Origin: a bacterium
GTDB lineage: Bacteria > JAMCPX01
Assembly: GCA_021789095.1 (NCBI GenBank)
Contig: JAJYJX010000050.1
Coordinates: 1-13,878 of the forward strand
Direction of reading: 5' to 3'
Length of the DNA stretch: 13,878 nt
Shown: positions 1-6,854 of the stretch, piece by piece
How positions within the stretch are numbered: position 1 is the stretch's first letter
Layout of the letters: each line of letters begins with the position of its first letter
Translations under genes and position numbers: made by a program
Notes under the pieces: model-generated
Told to the model about the DNA's origin: nothing
What the model saw: only the letters and a program-made list of their open reading frames with translations
The model's database searches: none

Positions 1-2066
1 AGCGGTATAGCAAACTCATGGGAATACGCGGCGCCATTAGGATTGTCCGGATTAAGCTGCATGTGGCATGTTGCACAGGTATCTGCAATGTTCGCGTGTT
101 TAGATACAAACACGGTTGTCGTGCCCGTAATGCCCGTGAAGTAGGAATTTTGACCCATCAGAATATCTGCCTGTGATGGTGTGTGAGGGAACATGCTGAT
201 GTAGGACAAAGGCACTGAGTCGTTGTGCAGGCCGTTGCGTGTGTTGTGACACTGCATACATACTGCACCTGCCCCGACTGAGTTAACCGTAAACCCTGCT
301 GCAAGAATGGTAGTATCAAATATCCTTAACTGATGCGGCAGCGATGCATCATGCGGGTCATGGCAAGCCTGACATGTCTGCGGCTGTACCTGCGAAACCG
401 TAAGACCAATGCCTGCAAGATCAGTTATCGTCAAACCGCCGAATCCAAGTACGTTTGTTGCACCGGTAAATCCGTACGCTGAAATCTGATCAAGATACGC
501 AGCAAAACCCTGCGCTGAATGACATCTTCCGCAATGAGCTGCGGTGGTACCCCTACCCTGAATAGTGCCTTCGCTCATAGCAAGATCATACTGTGCATGT
601 GCTGATTGCTGCCACTGGGTACCCATAACATGGTGTGTTGGTGCATCGTGACACTGGTTACAAACACCTGCAGTCCACCCAACTCTTTCAGCAAGGTCCT
701 GCGGGGAACTGCCGTGGGCAAGGGAATTGCTCGGTCCGTGGCAGTTTTCACATTGTATATTCGCAAGCGCTGCGACAGTCGGAGCCGTGGCTACCAAGTT
801 GGACCAGTTTGTTGATACCAGCGAGGTCGGGAATACCCATCCAGAAGCGGTTACAACGTCGTCAAACCCGTTGTTGTTTGCGAGCTTTGCCTGATCGAAG
901 CCTACCGTATGGCACGGCTCACATGACGAACCGTAATGGCTGCCAAGTACGCCGTTGATGCCGTTGGTAAACATACTTGCATGTGGTGTCTGCGACCACG
1001 GCGCAAAGTTTGTGGTTAAACTGCCGTTATGACAGGTAACACAATTGCTGTACCCGCCTGCTACCGGCTGCCCTACGCCTACCCATTTCCCTGCTACGAT
1101 GGTGAACGAGCTGCCTGACGACGCTACATTATAAACACCCAATTGATCTGGCGTAAACGTCACAATCGTGTACGGACCCGCCGCTACAGGAGAAAGAGAT
1201 GCAGAAGAGCCGTTCGGTACCGTTGTAAAATGTGCGTTGGGGCTTGCCTCGGTAAAATTAAGGTATACTGGCACGCCGACAGCCACATTTGCTATACCGG
1301 GCTGTTTGTCGCTTGCCCGTACCGTAATACTGGAACTGCTCTTTACGCCCTTAGAGTTTGTCGCATTTAAGGTCAAAGAATAGTTGCCCATTTCATTATA
1401 GCTGATAGGAACGATGGCGTCTCTATTAACCAACAACCCCCCTACCGGGTCAACCAAAGATGGGTCATTCGATGCCAGAGCTGCAAAGGTATCCGTTTTA
1501 AATGATACGGATAAGCAACTCGTTGAGCCTGTAAGCACCGGTGCTGTTGCCAGCGGTGATGTTATTGTCCAGTTACAGGTTACTGACAAGCCATTCGGAT
1601 CTGTTACTGTCGGGTTTAATGTAACATTGGCCGCATAGCCTACATTCAACTGGTTTGAAAGACCTGATATTAACGGGGCCTGATAAGGTCCGTGAACCAG
1701 GAGTACCTGGGTCGTTGATGTTACCCCTGCGACAACAGGTATTATGGATGATGTAAACTGGTTATATCCCGACATACTCACAACAGCCTGATACGACCCT
1801 ATCGGGACATTCGGGAATGAGAAATCACCGTTAGCATCGGTTGTTGTGTTTGATGCAACTGCAGGGTTTATTGCCACAGTGGCACCTACTATAGGTGTCT
1901 GTGAAGCACTGTCCTCGACAGTCCCTGATATATTGCCTACACTTAAGCCTGGTGCACCCGGTATACCGGCAGTTCCCGTGCTTCCTTTGCTTCCACTACA
2001 CCCTATTCCTATAATAGTGATGAGTGTAAACAGACTTACAAATTTGAGTATCTTTTTAAAACTCAT
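1..2066 (-). CDS. Multiheme c-type cytochrome lipoprotein with collagen-like and Ig-like N-terminus (partial)
   Basis: Probable cell-surface or periplasmic electron-transfer protein; its C-terminus lies beyond the window, leaving 688 visible residues. It starts at ATG 2066 with AAGGAGG (2077-2071) four bases upstream. Residues 1-22 are a signal peptide ending in a lipobox-like GIG before Cys23, so it is likely lipid-anchored. Six Gly-X-Y triplets follow (about 25-42), then a carboxypeptidase-regulatory-like beta domain (about 45-108), then an Ig/PKD-like region to about 335. Eight in-frame CxxCH haem-binding motifs follow, with first Cys at 342, 382, 439, 469, 512, 565, 603 and 664 (CVTCH, CEPCH, CENCH, CNQCH, CGRCH, CQACH, CMQCH, CATCH). 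More haems may lie past the edge. Family knowledge: such proteins pass electrons across or outside the envelope. The specific partner is unknown. Haem attachment would depend on ResB/CcsA, encoded at 11063-13269. Confidence 0.9.
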   Translation of the reverse strand, partial: MSFKKILKFVSLFTLITIIGIGCSGSKGSTGTAGIPGAPGLSVGNISGTVEDSASQTPIVGATVAINPAVASNTTTDANGDFSFPNVPIGSYQAVVSMSGYNQFTSSIIPVVAGVTSTTQVLLVHGPYQAPLISGLSNQLNVGYAANVTLNPTVTDPNGLSVTCNWTITSPLATAPVLTGSTSCLSVSFKTDTFAALASNDPSLVDPVGGLLVNRDAIVPISYNEMGNYSLTLNATNSKGVKSSSSITVRASDKQPGIANVAVGVPVYLNFTEASPNAHFTTVPNGSSASLSPVAAGPYTIVTFTPDQLGVYNVASSGSSFTIVAGKWVGVGQPVAGGYSNCVTCHNGSLTTNFAPWSQTPHASMFTNGINGVLGSHYGSSCEPCHTVGFDQAKLANNNGFDDVVTASGWVFPTSLVSTNWSNLVATAPTVAALANIQCENCHGPSNSLAHGSSPQDLAERVGWTAGVCNQCHDAPTHHVMGTQWQQSAHAQYDLAMSEGTIQGRGTTAAHCGRCHSAQGFAAYLDQISAYGFTGATNVLGFGGLTITDLAGIGLTVSQVQPQTCQACHDPHDASLPHQLRIFDTTILAAGFTVNSVGAGAVCMQCHNTRNGLHNDSVPLSYISMFPHTPSQADILMGQNSYFTGITGTTTVFVSKHANIADTCATCHMQLNPDNPNGAAYSHEFAIP

Positions 2067-2237: not shown

Positions 2238-3620
2238 TTATGAAAATACCCTTTTAAATTTCGCAAACAGCTTTTTAATGCCGCTTATAGAGCCAAGATG
2301 TTTCAGGACGTATACAAAGGATGAGATGGTTGTATAGGTATAGAGGAACCCTGCTACACGGAGCAGTTTCAGTGTCTTGTTTGATACTGTTGTATCCTGA
2401 AACGCCCTTTTATTGTAATAATCAAACCTTGTGAAATCTTCATCGAACCCGTATGCGGAATTGGACTTTACCATCTCGTACAGGTCGGTACCCGGCAAGG
2501 GCTGTGTCAGATTAAAGGTTACTTCATCAGAATTTATCTGCCTTGCAAATTTTATTGTTTTTAAAAGTTCATACTTTGTTTCACCTGGTGCGCCAAGCAT
2601 AAAGAATACAAGTGTTTTTATGCCTGTTTCATGGGCAATACGTATAACATCCTTTACCTGCTCAGGCACAATGCCCTTTTTATAGATCTCTTTTAGTATG
2701 TTCTCGTTTGCAGATTCAGCGCCTATATGCAGTTTCCTCAATCCCGCATTATACATGGCTTTTAAGAGCTCTGTATCGATTGTGTCTGCCCTTGTATTGC
2801 AGCCCCAGACAAGGTCCAGTTTTCGGTTTTCAAGCTTTTCTGTAAATTCCCTTACCCAGTTTTTGTTGATCGTAAATGTATCATCCTGGAGCATAAATGC
2901 CTGGATCTTATACATGGATTTTAGTTCCGTTATTTCCTGAACCACATTGTCCGGCGTCCTGTACCTGAGCTTTATACCGAATATCTTTTTCAGCGTGGGC
3001 TGGCAGTATGTGCAATGAAACGGGCAGCCCCTGCTCGCTATAATGTTTGTTCCCTTCATTGACCGGCCTGTTGCATCCATGTAATGCCAGTACTGCGTGT
3101 ATTTTTCATACTCGACAAGCCTGTGGTCCGGGAACGGGATATCATCAAGCTGTTCAGTCACATGAATGTCGTCTGACCTGTAAATATTGTCACCGTCCTT
3201 TATCCATGCCCCTTTTACAGGGCCCTTTGACGGAAGGTTCTTTAAAAGTTCTACAAACGGTCTCTCGCCTTCGCCGACAACAAGTGCATCAACATAAGGT
3301 ATAACGGTCTCGGGCATTATTGTTGTATGGGGACCTCCGGCAACAACATACTTGCCGAGTGATTTAGCCATCTGAGCTATATGTACGGCGTCATTGAACA
3401 TGATGGTATCAATGTATATACCGACTATATCAGTTGCAAAATTAACAAGGCGTTTGAATACATAATCATAGTTTCTGTGGAATGTGGTATCAATGACCTG
3501 TACATTCGCATCAAGGGATTTCCTCAGGTATGTTGCAATGTAGATCGCACCGAGCGGTGGATCGCCTGACGCGTATTTCATTCTTGGAAATACAATGGAG
3601 ATGTTATAATTATTCAGCAT
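2238..3620 (-). CDS. B12-binding-domain radical SAM protein
   Basis: A 460-residue radical SAM enzyme of the cobalamin-binding (class B-like) type. Residues about 5-125 form a Rossmann-like B12-binding domain (SIVFPRMKYASGDPPLGAIY near the start, VVAGGPH at 92-98, VVGEGE at 124-129) and lack a clear DxHxxG base-off motif, which is common in this class. The 4Fe-4S cluster motif CxxxCxxC is Cys199, Cys203, Cys206 (RGCPFHCTYC). A TIM-barrel core follows, including HIGAES and a C-terminal FNLTQPLPGT segment. The family performs difficult methylations or rearrangements, and the substrate cannot be read from sequence. The gene overlaps the upstream methyltransferase by 7 bases, so it is translationally coupled and last in a three-gene operon. 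Its ATG has AAGAAGG almost abutting it, which also favours coupling. Confidence 0.88.
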   Translation of the reverse strand: MLNNYNISIVFPRMKYASGDPPLGAIYIATYLRKSLDANVQVIDTTFHRNYDYVFKRLVNFATDIVGIYIDTIMFNDAVHIAQMAKSLGKYVVAGGPHTTIMPETVIPYVDALVVGEGERPFVELLKNLPSKGPVKGAWIKDGDNIYRSDDIHVTEQLDDIPFPDHRLVEYEKYTQYWHYMDATGRSMKGTNIIASRGCPFHCTYCQPTLKKIFGIKLRYRTPDNVVQEITELKSMYKIQAFMLQDDTFTINKNWVREFTEKLENRKLDLVWGCNTRADTIDTELLKAMYNAGLRKLHIGAESANENILKEIYKKGIVPEQVKDVIRIAHETGIKTLVFFMLGAPGETKYELLKTIKFARQINSDEVTFNLTQPLPGTDLYEMVKSNSAYGFDEDFTRFDYYNKRAFQDTTVSNKTLKLLRVAGFLYTYTTISSFVYVLKHLGSISGIKKLFAKFKRVFS

Positions 3621-4504
3621 ACCTTCTTAAGGACCACGGCAATCGTGTAAGCACCTTCCCTGATAAATCCCGGAAGCTGCCTGCCGTGTGACAGTTCCCA
3701 TGTATCTTTTATATCCTGTATGTGGAACCCTGCTCCTGAAACCAGCGACTCGATCTCTTTTACGGTGAAGTTATGGTACGGCGATTTACAGGGACTTACT
3801 GTATTGCTTACCTGGGATATTTCCCAGTCACCGGCCTCCTTGCCCTTATATCCCCTGTATATCGCAGATGCTATCCTTCTATAGCTGTTGATAAAAATGC
3901 TCCTGAGTTTTAATAGGAGCACCCATACAGCCATGCCCGGCAGACTCATCATCCCGCCTTCACTATTCTGATTGGCGGGAGTGGCGGCAGCCCTCTTGAT
4001 AATAAACCTGCCATAGATAATCTTGTATATACCGCTCAGAACATGCAGTATGCCCATGTCAAAAAGATTATTATGGACGGTCATAAAAACCCTTCCGCCG
4101 GGCTTCAACACCCGGTAAACCTCTCTCATCATAGCGCTCCGCTTTTCAAGAACGGTTATATGGTTTAAAAACTGTTTTGTCATAAGTACAACATCCATGG
4201 TACCGCTGCGCACAGGCAGACACCTTGCATCAGCGCACATCAGATATACATTGTCCGCATCCATGAGGGACTTTGCAGAACGCAGCATGCCCTTAACAAG
4301 ATCAAGGGCGTAAACCCTTGCACATAGAGCTGCCGCAGGCTTTGCCTCCCTGCCTGCTCCGCAGCCCAGATCAAGGACAAAATCGTCCCCCTTAATCAAT
4401 GTAGGGAACACATTCTTTTCATACTCTTCAAGCCCTGCCTTTGAATGCTCTGTGAATGTCTTAATCTCCTGCTGCTGGCTGTACTTTTGCGCAATGGGAT
4501 CTAT
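3614..4504 (-). CDS. Class I SAM-dependent methyltransferase, probable AUA start
   Basis: Methyltransferase of the Methyltransf_11/25 type. Numbered from ATA 4504 it has 296 residues: motif I VLDLGCGAG at about 43-51, acidic ALDL, CADARCLPV and LKPGGRVFMTVHN, plus a C-terminal NFTVKEIESLVSGAGF. The first conventional start is GTG 4411, but that leaves only 11 residues before motif I and has no good Shine-Dalgarno. The frame stays open upstream with protein-like sequence (DPIAQKYSQQQ, then GLEEYEKN), and no ATG, GTG or TTG occurs before the TAA near 4560. ATA at 4504 has AAGGAG six bases upstream and overlaps the flavin reductase TAG as ATAG. A poorly conserved, partly hydrophobic insert lies between the core motifs and the C-terminus. 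The substrate is unknown. It is second in the operon and overlaps the radical SAM gene by 7 bases. Confidence 0.85.
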   Translation of the reverse strand: MDPIAQKYSQQQEIKTFTEHSKAGLEEYEKNVFPTLIKGDDFVLDLGCGAGREAKPAAALCARVYALDLVKGMLRSAKSLMDADNVYLMCADARCLPVRSGTMDVVLMTKQFLNHITVLEKRSAMMREVYRVLKPGGRVFMTVHNNLFDMGILHVLSGIYKIIYGRFIIKRAAATPANQNSEGGMMSLPGMAVWVLLLKLRSIFINSYRRIASAIYRGYKGKEAGDWEISQVSNTVSPCKSPYHNFTVKEIESLVSGAGFHIQDIKDTWELSHGRQLPGFIREGAYTIAVVLKKVC

Positions 4505-5046
4505 GTTCGGCTCCTTTTTATAGTAACGATACTGCCGGGATCCAATGTGACATACATATCGTTACCAAGGTATAAAATAGGCTTTACGGTATTGCAGTTA
4601 ATAGTGCCGGACCCCGGTTGAATATCCGCTGATTCATGTATGAAAACAATCTTCCCTATAAAGAGGTCGTGGTCGCCTGCCGAAACTATATCCTGCACAG
4701 AACATTCGAATGCAGCATAAGCAGACTTCATAACCGGTACGTCGAGCTGCTTCGACGGTTTAAGTTCAATGCCGGTCTCTTTGATCTTGTTCCTGTCCCT
4801 GCCGCTAAAACTTCCCAGTGTAACAAGTGTTCTTAAATATTTAAAGTCTATGAAGTTGGCCGAGAATACACCCGACGATTTGATCAATTGGTGTGTAAAT
4901 CTTTTGGGAGATACCGATACAACGTAGATCATCGGATCTTTTGATACACCCGTCTGCCACACTGCGGGCATCAGGTTTGTTTTGTCTCCGTGCCTTGACC
5001 CTATCAATGCGACAACATTGGGATAAAACTGGTAAAATTCAGCCAT
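4501..5046 (-). CDS. Flavin reductase-like FMN-binding protein
   Basis: A 181-residue protein of the flavin reductase/flavoredoxin family (split-barrel FMN-binding fold). Recognisable pieces are the N-terminal YPNVVALIGSRHGDKTNLMPAVW, a substrate-side PMIYVVSVSPKRFTHQLIKS, the loop SFSGRDRNKIKETG, and GDHDLFIGKI near residues 128-137. Length is normal for the family. Members bind FMN and reduce flavin with NAD(P)H or act as electron carriers. Start ATG 5046 has AGAGG four bases upstream. It is the first gene of the operon with the methyltransferase and the B12 radical SAM enzyme. A role as a low-potential electron donor to the radical SAM or cobalamin partner is inference only. Its stop TAG (4503-4501) overlaps the next gene by four bases. 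Confidence 0.85.
   Translation of the reverse strand: MAEFYQFYPNVVALIGSRHGDKTNLMPAVWQTGVSKDPMIYVVSVSPKRFTHQLIKSSGVFSANFIDFKYLRTLVTLGSFSGRDRNKIKETGIELKPSKQLDVPVMKSAYAAFECSVQDIVSAGDHDLFIGKIVFIHESADIQPGSGTINCNTVKPILYLGNDMYVTLDPGSIVTIKRSRT
4511..4516 (-). promoter_or_regulatory. Shine-Dalgarno that decides the methyltransferase start
   Basis: AAGGAG read on the minus strand lies inside the last codons of the flavin reductase gene. It is followed by the six-base spacer CCGAAC and then ATA (4504-4502). This is ideal spacing for initiation at ATA, and too far for the next candidate, ATT, three codons later. Confidence 0.55.
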
Positions 5047-5098
5047 TCTTCCTCTCCCTATCTCTTATCCTTTAGCACATGTATCTCAGAATTGTCAT

Positions 5099-5158
5099 TA
5101 AGCAAGGTTTGCTTGTTCGATTGGGGTACCCCTTCACTCACTTTACTAACCCCGCTAC
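5099..5158 (-). repeat. Dispersed 60-bp repeat, copy 1
   Basis: Reverse-complemented, this stretch aligns without gaps to 9722-9781 with 46 of 60 identical bases (hand count). Shared blocks include GTAGCGGG, AGTGAGTGAAGGGGT, CCCC and CGAACAAGCAA. It contains the perfect 10-base palindrome GGGGTACCCC (5123-5132) and the small hairpin AAGCAA-GGT-TTGCTT (5100-5114). It lies between the divergent flavin reductase and phosphoesterase genes. No coding capacity is apparent. Confidence 0.6.
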
Positions 5159-5184
5159 TTTTCAAATGAACTTTTCGGGTTTAA

Positions 5185-5190
5185 TATAGT
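5185..5190 (+). promoter_or_regulatory. Possible -10 box for the phosphoesterase gene
   Basis: TATAGT lies eight bases before ATG 5199, and no convincing -35 hexamer sits 16-18 bases upstream. If used, transcription would begin within a base or two of the start codon. The call is weak. Confidence 0.25.
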
Positions 5191-5198
5191 AGTGAGCC

Positions 5199-6854
5199 AT
5201 GGAGATAATTTACATTACAGACATACACGGTGCAAGGGCACAGCTTGAAAAACTCTTTGAGGTGACCTTTGCGGATCTATACATCATAAGCGGCGATCTT
5301 ATATATTCGCCCTTCTATTCGCCCAGCACAGGCACGCTGTTTCTCGAACTTCAGGACACATTTCACCTCATGCGGCAACAAGACGCACCCGATATGCAGA
5401 TAGAAGAGTACGTACGTTTGCTCCTTAAGAAGGGACTGCCCGAAGACCTGAAGAACAAGGCAGAAGAGTACCTCAAACTGACAGAAAGGGCGCTGGGTGT
5501 AATGAACGAAAAATACAAGCAGATGGAACACGTATTCTCAATGATCAAAAAGGCACCTATAATCGTCCTGCCGGGAAATTATGATATGGATTTGTCCCTT
5601 ACACCTCTTGCCAACAGGCAGATTCATAAGAAAGTGGTTGAAATAGAAGGTTTAAGATTAGCGGGTTACGGGGGTGCAAACATGAGGACAGCAGGTATAC
5701 CTGAAGAAGGGATGGTCAAGTTCATAGAAACAGAACACTATTCAGAGCCGTATGATTTTTTCTCCAATGCACAACCCGACATATTCATATGCCATCAACC
5801 GCCATACGGTCACTTTGATCACATAGCGTCATACGGCTCCATAGGGAGCCTGGGGATTGAGAAAGCGGTTGAAGAAATAAATCCTCTCCTTGTCCTGAGC
5901 GGCCATGTACATGAAGATTTCGGCTGTGAATATGTAGATAAAACATTTTATGTAAATCCATCAAACTTCGGGGCCGTAGAAACAATAGAGGGCAAATTCA
6001 TGGACGGAGGGTACTATGCAAAGATAACGGTAGAAAATAAAACCATACAGAAGGTCATTCTTAAACGCGTGGAGGAATACAGGCCTTACGATATTGTAGA
6101 TTTTATACCCGAAGGCGACAGATTAAAAGAGATTATATTGGACGAAGCAAGGTACAAAGGTCTGAAAGAGAATATACACGATAAACTTCAACGCCCTGTA
6201 CCGGTCACGCATGTTCAGGAGATCAAGCTTTTTAACTCCGTAAAACACTTTTCCAGGCATTACGAATCAAAAGAAACAAACGAGCGGATAAAGTTTCTGA
6301 AAAAGGTGGCGTTGATCATGGAAGAAAAGGGAAGGCCTGTCGCCTTTGATCTGGTCGGCTCGACGCTGTTCGGTATGGCAGAAAAGAGTTCTGACATAGA
6401 TATCGTGATTTACTATACCGACAATCCTTCAGACGGAGATGCAGATAAAAATATAGAAGAAAGAATATCCGAATTCAACAGCATTCTCAAAGAGTTTGGC
6501 AGCGATAAATTCCAGGTTGAGATTGTTGATGCAATAAACCTTAAGGACGTTGAAAAGGCCATTATCGAAGAGAATTTTCAATCGGTCGTAACAGGCAGGT
6601 TTATTTTTTACAGGGCTATCTGCAGGCCTGTACACCACAGGCTTATACGAAGCTACGAGGGAATGCTCGAGAGCAAGGATAATTACCGCAAAGAGATGGA
6701 AGCATCCATGAGGGAGGTAATCAATACTCTTGTAAAGACATCGAGGCATTTTGAATCATTCAGAAAATACGAGGCAAGGCTTATCGATCTGGACGTGCCA
6801 ATCCCGCAGCCCATACGGAGAAGGCTCAAACAGTATTTCCAGATGGGAGAATAA
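5199..6854 (+). CDS. Calcineurin-like metallophosphoesterase fused to a nucleotidyltransferase domain
   Basis: A 551-residue two-domain cytosolic protein without a signal peptide. Residues 1 to about 290 are a metallophosphoesterase with the expected metal ligands: D8 and H10 (DIHG), D33 (SGDL), N127 and D129 (GNYD in place of the usual GNHD), H199 (ICHQPP), H236 and H238 (GHVH). Residues about 375-480 resemble the polymerase-beta/MNT nucleotidyltransferase core: G387-S388 (LVGSTLFG), D399 and D401 (SDIDIVIYY), and a possible third acidic residue near 440 (FQVEIVDA). A charged, probably helical tail follows. The start is fixed by an in-frame TGA two codons upstream and by the need for D8. The Shine-Dalgarno is weak (AGTGAG). 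It is the only plus-strand gene and is monocistronic. The phosphoesterase substrate and nucleotidyl acceptor are unknown. Confidence 0.85.
   Translation: MEIIYITDIHGARAQLEKLFEVTFADLYIISGDLIYSPFYSPSTGTLFLELQDTFHLMRQQDAPDMQIEEYVRLLLKKGLPEDLKNKAEEYLKLTERALGVMNEKYKQMEHVFSMIKKAPIIVLPGNYDMDLSLTPLANRQIHKKVVEIEGLRLAGYGGANMRTAGIPEEGMVKFIETEHYSEPYDFFSNAQPDIFICHQPPYGHFDHIASYGSIGSLGIEKAVEEINPLLVLSGHVHEDFGCEYVDKTFYVNPSNFGAVETIEGKFMDGGYYAKITVENKTIQKVILKRVEEYRPYDIVDFIPEGDRLKEIILDEARYKGLKENIHDKLQRPVPVTHVQEIKLFNSVKHFSRHYESKETNERIKFLKKVALIMEEKGRPVAFDLVGSTLFGMAEKSSDIDIVIYYTDNPSDGDADKNIEERISEFNSILKEFGSDKFQVEIVDAINLKDVEKAIIEENFQSVVTGRFIFYRAICRPVHHRLIRSYEGMLESKDNYRKEMEASMREVINTLVKTSRHFESFRKYEARLIDLDVPIPQPIRRRLKQYFQMGE

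What the first reader, a model, noticed from the sequence alone, without database searches (positions are those of the whole stretch)
4411..4516. Methyltransferase probably initiates at AUA in an ATAG stop/start overlap
The methyltransferase frame has no ATG, GTG or TTG upstream of GTG 4411, yet 31 codons of convincing protein sequence precede it and are needed for a normal N-terminus before motif I. ATA at 4504 has AAGGAG six bases upstream and shares the bases ATAG with the TAG stop of the flavin reductase, a direct analogue of the common ATGA coupling junction. AUA initiation is very rare. A simple A-to-G sequencing error is unlikely to explain it, since ATG here would destroy the flavin reductase stop. 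A less likely alternative is a -1 frameshift at the upstream A5 run, which would make a flavin reductase-methyltransferase fusion.
Basis: partly seen in the sequence, partly recalled or inferred. Interest (0 to 1): 0.62.

Follow-up and report, generated by a model that had tools for sequence, protein, structure and literature searches.

The report
Methyltransferase gene starting at AUA
A bacterial methyltransferase gene seems to start at the very rare start codon AUA, which shares bases with the stop codon of the gene before it, and the same genome uses exactly this arrangement at the gene for initiation factor IF3, so the odd start is probably real.

Summary
The methyltransferase (MT) frame has no ATG, GTG or TTG between its in-frame stop (4564-4562, minus strand) and GTG 4411. 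The 30 codons after ATA 4504 are 50-60% identical to four homologues and evolve under constraint (pN/pS 0.29-0.42). All four homologues start at an ATG about five codons upstream of the ATA position. ATA 4504 lies 6 nt behind AAGGAG and forms ATAG with the flavin reductase stop.
The best support came from elsewhere. In this genome and in six others of its family, infC (IF3) also lacks a canonical start and begins at a conserved ATA that forms the same ATAG overlap with the thrS stop. In 366 strongly coding genes (457 kb, about a fifth of the genome), this MT and infC are the two clearest cases without a standard start.
Most likely the MT starts at AUA 4504, placed by AAGGAG and coupled to flavin reductase termination, at reduced efficiency and perhaps under IF3 control (inferred). 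GTG 4411, a -1 frameshift fusion and a one-base error are each disfavoured. No homologue has MT next to flavin reductase, so conservation of this junction cannot be tested, and recent loss of the start cannot be excluded. AUA starts are known elsewhere.

The parts
4501..5046 (-). Flavin reductase-like protein, 181 aa, ATG start, TAG stop at 4503-4501
   Evidence: Pfam PF01613 E 2.7e-30; homologues in five family genomes, 67-71% identical, end at the same place or within a few codons
4511..4516 (-). Shine-Dalgarno AAGGAG, 6 nt before ATA
   Evidence: sequence; AAGGAG/AAGGAGG at similar spacing precedes many genes of this genome
4502..4504 (-). ATA, proposed start codon of the methyltransferase; overlaps the flavin reductase stop as ATAG
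   Evidence: best near-cognate codon at usable distance from the SD; no ATG/GTG/TTG in frame
4412..4504 (-). 31 codons of the methyltransferase upstream of GTG 4411
   Evidence: 50-60% identity and pN/pS 0.29-0.42 against four homologues
3614..4504 (-). Class I SAM-dependent methyltransferase, 296 codons from ATA
   Evidence: Pfam PF08241 E 2.1e-20; 53-60% identical to family homologues
4409..4411 (-). GTG, first standard start codon in the frame; not the likely start
   Evidence: no SD; homologues have no start at this position
2238..3620 (-). B12-binding radical SAM protein; its ATG overlaps the methyltransferase stop by 7 nt (ATGCTGA)
   Evidence: Pfam PF04055 and PF02310; sequence

Best explanation
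The methyltransferase is translated from AUA at 4504. The 30S subunit is placed by AAGGAG six nucleotides upstream, with help from ribosomes that have just terminated at the overlapping UAG of the flavin reductase; initiator tRNA reads AUA with a third-position mismatch, so output is lower than from AUG and should fall when IF3 is high. Shown here: the absence of any standard start, constraint on the first 30 codons, the SD, the overlap, and a conserved ATAG/AUA junction at thrS-infC in the same genome. Inferred: actual initiation, coupling, reduced yield and IF3 sensitivity.
For: No ATG/GTG/TTG in 50 codons. Homologues conserve the segment and start at an ATG about five codons further upstream; pN/pS 0.29-0.42 over those 30 codons, similar to the rest of the gene (0.34-0.37). 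AAGGAG at 6 nt, chance 0.25% at a given position; unique in the genome as a junction between two coding frames. infC in G000, G001, G002, G003, G006, G007, G008: thrS TAG and infC ATA share ATAG, no standard start upstream, the next one 15-28 codons in (Pfam check). Literature: S. aureus infC, ccpN and citZ start at AUA, the reporters of ccpN and citZ giving roughly 10-30% of AUG (PMC13009471); L. monocytogenes rsbW, overlapping rsbV, is still translated from ATA (PMC13068326).
Against: No homologue carries the MT behind flavin reductase, so this AUA is seen once. In E. coli a coupled aUAA junction without an SD gave no initiation (PMC9955659); the SD is the main reason to expect otherwise here. 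The assembly has 203 contigs and its reads cannot be inspected. The AlphaFold model is too poor (mean pLDDT 44) to show that the N-terminus is needed.
Confidence: 0.8

Rival explanations
1. The start codon was lost recently and the gene is now unexpressed or barely expressed: a young pseudogene whose frame has not decayed yet.
For: This copy is a divergent extra paralogue; the genome keeps the family-typical copy with ATG on another contig, 83% identical to the G005 gene. No homologue shares this junction.
Against: The full frame is intact with pN/pS 0.34-0.37; an SD at the right spacing remains; the frame overlaps the next gene in the operon.
Confidence: 0.09
2. Assembly or sequencing error hides a standard start.
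For: Single fragmented assembly, reads not available.
Against: The only one-base change giving ATG at this site is ATA to ATG, which removes the flavin reductase stop and adds about 36 residues that no homologue has. A one-base indel would break the MT frame or the conserved flavin reductase end.
Confidence: 0.05
3. A -1 frameshift at the A5 run makes a flavin reductase-methyltransferase fusion.
For: The MT frame is -1 relative to flavin reductase and is open from before the A5 run onward.
Against: No X_XXY_YYZ heptamer (AUA AAA AGG); G004 has the same AUAAAAAG with no MT behind it, so the run is explained by the conserved TIKR sequence; MT homologues stand alone with their own ATG.
Confidence: 0.03
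4. Translation starts at GTG 4411 and the upstream homology is a remnant.
For: It is the first standard start codon.
Against: No SD; homologues have no start there; upstream codons are constrained as strongly as the rest.
Confidence: 0.03

Closest known systems
thrS-infC junction of the same genome family (found here)
   Same: ATAG shared by a TAG stop and an ATA start; no standard start in frame; SD-like purine stretch upstream
   Different: conserved in seven genomes and on an essential gene known elsewhere for non-AUG starts; SD weaker in most (AGAGAGG) than the AAGGAG here
AUA-initiated infC, ccpN and citZ of Staphylococcus aureus (PMC13009471)
   Same: AUA start, with a strong SD
   Different: shown by ribosome profiling and reporters; here only inferred; not described there as ATAG overlaps
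L. monocytogenes rsbW with ATG to ATA (PMC13068326)
   Same: AUA start inside an overlap with the preceding gene of an operon
   Different: 17-nt overlap; selected mutants and rare strains
4-nt ATGA stop/start overlaps with termination-reinitiation (PMC6728339)
   Same: same geometry and probable coupling
   Different: canonical start with UGA; a 4-nt overlap on a UAG stop needs an xUA start codon
Streptomyces sigR GTC start repressed by IF3 (PMC5472188)
   Same: non-AUG start that limits output, there through IF3
   Different: GUC codon, first gene of its pair, shown by experiment

Membership tests
Genes initiated at AUA | no ATG/GTG/TTG in frame upstream of conserved coding sequence | tested here: met
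Genes initiated at AUA | strong SD at usual spacing from AUA | tested here: met
   AAGGAG, 6 nt
Genes initiated at AUA | AUA conserved in orthologues | tested here: inconclusive
   no orthologue with this junction found; homologues elsewhere in the family use ATG
Genes initiated at AUA | initiation shown by N-terminal peptide, ribosome profiling or reporter | not testable with these tools
   no such data for this organism
4-nt stop/start overlap with translational coupling | start codon overlaps upstream stop by 4 nt | tested here: met
   ATAG 4504-4501
4-nt stop/start overlap with translational coupling | downstream translation depends on upstream translation | not testable with these tools
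   needs a reporter
Programmed -1 frameshifting | slippery X_XXY_YYZ heptamer in the upstream frame with a stimulator | tested here: not met
   AUA AAA AGG; same run in G004 without a downstream MT; fold around the junction not unusual, z -0.19
Class I SAM-dependent methyltransferase | Methyltransf_11/25 domain with motif I | tested here: met
   PF08241 E 2.1e-20, VLDLGCGAGRE

The most novel reading that the evidence does not exclude
This lineage uses the ATAG overlap as a low-output junction: UAG-terminated genes coupled to AUA starts, fixed at thrS-infC and recruited again at this methyltransferase, so that the IF3 level sets methyltransferase output together with IF3 itself.
Probability: 0.2. 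Interest if true: 0.6.

Novelty: new member of a known kind. Interest (0 to 1): 0.42.

Why it matters
Gene finders that allow only ATG, GTG and TTG would cut this protein short by 31 residues and would miss the infC start in seven genomes of the family. A UAG stop can form a 4-nt overlap only with an xUA start, so AUA at ATAG is a testable variant of ordinary ATGA coupling. It may link a metabolic operon to IF3 and offers a natural pair (this gene and infC) for asking how SD strength and termination rescue a poor start codon.

Tried and rejected
Searching for orthologues with the same junction: phylum-wide genomes, the GTDB contig collection, viral contigs and plasmids gave only four close homologues (one in this genome), none beside flavin reductase. 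The idea that the SD and leader descend from the homologues' leader gave alignments no better than shuffles (p 0.13-0.91). RNA folding at the junction is ordinary. AlphaFold with four sequences was too poor to use. The other 19 AAGGAG-N4-8-ATAG sites are not junctions of two coding frames. The L091 gene flagged in the first scan has an ordinary ATG behind AGGAGG.

Full report
What is there. On the minus strand the flavin reductase (5046-4501, PF01613) ends ...ACT ATA AAA AGG AGC CGA ACA TAG, and the methyltransferase frame reads ...AAA AAG GAG CCG AAC ATA GAT CCC ATT GCG CAA AAG TAC. The frame is open from a stop at 4564-4562 and holds no ATG, GTG or TTG before GTG 4411. AAGGAG (4516-4511) precedes ATA (4504-4502) by six bases, and ATA shares ATAG with the stop. 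The MT stop overlaps the ATG of a B12-binding radical SAM gene by 7 nt (ATGCTGA), so the MT sits in a tight operon.

The upstream codons are protein. Four close homologues exist in the genome collections searched: a second copy in this genome (G000:C101) and one each in three genomes of the family. They are 53-60% identical to the window protein, and the conservation runs through the 30 codons before GTG 4411 at 50-60% identity with pN/pS 0.29-0.42, like the rest of the gene. All four homologues begin with ATG a few codons before N-P-I-V-K-K-Y; the window's ATA lies about five codons downstream of that position. GTG 4411 has no SD and no counterpart in homologues.

Is it an error or a frameshift? 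In five family genomes the flavin reductase ends at the same point or within a few codons (TIKRDR stop in three, VTIRR stop and SLITTE stop in two), so its TAG is in the expected place; ATG at 4504 would extend it by about 36 residues. The A5 run before the junction is also present in the G004 flavin reductase, where a different, convergent gene follows, so it needs no frameshift to explain it. The zero-frame codons AUA AAA AGG form no tandem slippery heptamer.

How unusual is it in this genome? In 41 contig stretches (457 kb, 366 strongly coding frames by a hexamer score trained on the long frames) I asked which genes have coding sequence before their first standard start. The MT ranked first (24.3) and infC second (20.4); the next scored 11.7 and 11.5. 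Genes here start mostly with ATG and commonly carry AAGGAG or AAGGAGG. AAGGAG-N4-8-ATAG occurs 20 times in the genome, only here between two coding frames.

The precedent in the same genome. infC has no standard start either. In G000, G001, G002, G003, G006, G007 and G008 the thrS stop TAG and an infC ATA share ATAG, the infC frame closes 5-16 codons upstream without ATG, GTG or TTG, and the next standard start would remove 15-28 residues of the IF3 N-domain (domains checked for G000). For G002 the script stopped at an earlier ATA; the conserved TACATAGAAAAG site lies 30 nt further on in the same frames. A divergent infC in G005 also begins at ATA behind GGAGGTGA, without the thrS overlap. So ribosomes of this lineage very probably initiate at AUA in an ATAG overlap. 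infC is known for non-AUG starts in other bacteria, and infC loci sampled from other phyla often lack an early standard start too, so that part is not new in kind.

What the literature adds. Ribosome profiling in S. aureus shows AUA starts at infC and ccpN, and reporters of ccpN and citZ give about 10% of AUG, up to 30% for ccpN in rich medium (PMC13009471). L. monocytogenes rsbW, which overlaps rsbV, is translated from ATA at reduced level (PMC13068326). In E. coli, aUAA in place of AUGA in a coupled pair without an SD gave no initiation (PMC9955659), which suggests that the AAGGAG matters. I found no paper describing ATAG overlaps (open-access library only).

Evolution (inference). The second copy in this genome is the close relative of the other family genes (83% to G005); the window copy is a diverged paralogue that lies behind flavin reductase only here. 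One route that keeps the flavin reductase stop at every step is ATGA to ATAA to ATAG. Alignment of the leader with the homologues was no better than chance, so the history is open.

Verdict. What remains unshown is initiation itself, coupling, and conservation of this particular junction.

Noticed in passing
L126:1480 (G000:C128) and L124, L125, L127-L130: thrS and infC share ATAG, with infC starting at ATA, in seven genomes of the family; standard gene finders would truncate IF3.
   Followed up: yes
L123 (G005:C69): A divergent infC begins at ATA behind GGAGGTGA without the thrS overlap; possibly a different origin of infC or a binning contaminant in G005.
   Followed up: partly
L147:5477 onward: A 709-codon frame behind a response-regulator-like gene has a fair coding signal over 33 codons before its first standard start (TTG) and no clear near-cognate start with an SD.
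   Followed up: partly
window 3-2066: Large protein with many CxxCH motifs (multihaem cytochrome-like) and a lipoprotein-like signal, cut by the contig end.
   Followed up: no
window 5046-5199: The flavin reductase stands back to back with a metallophosphatase-type gene; this pair is kept in G001 and G008 while the genes behind flavin reductase differ.
   Followed up: partly
G003:C46 and G008:C117: Clusters of several B12-binding radical SAM genes; G003 has at least 21 matches to the window's radical SAM protein.
   Followed up: no
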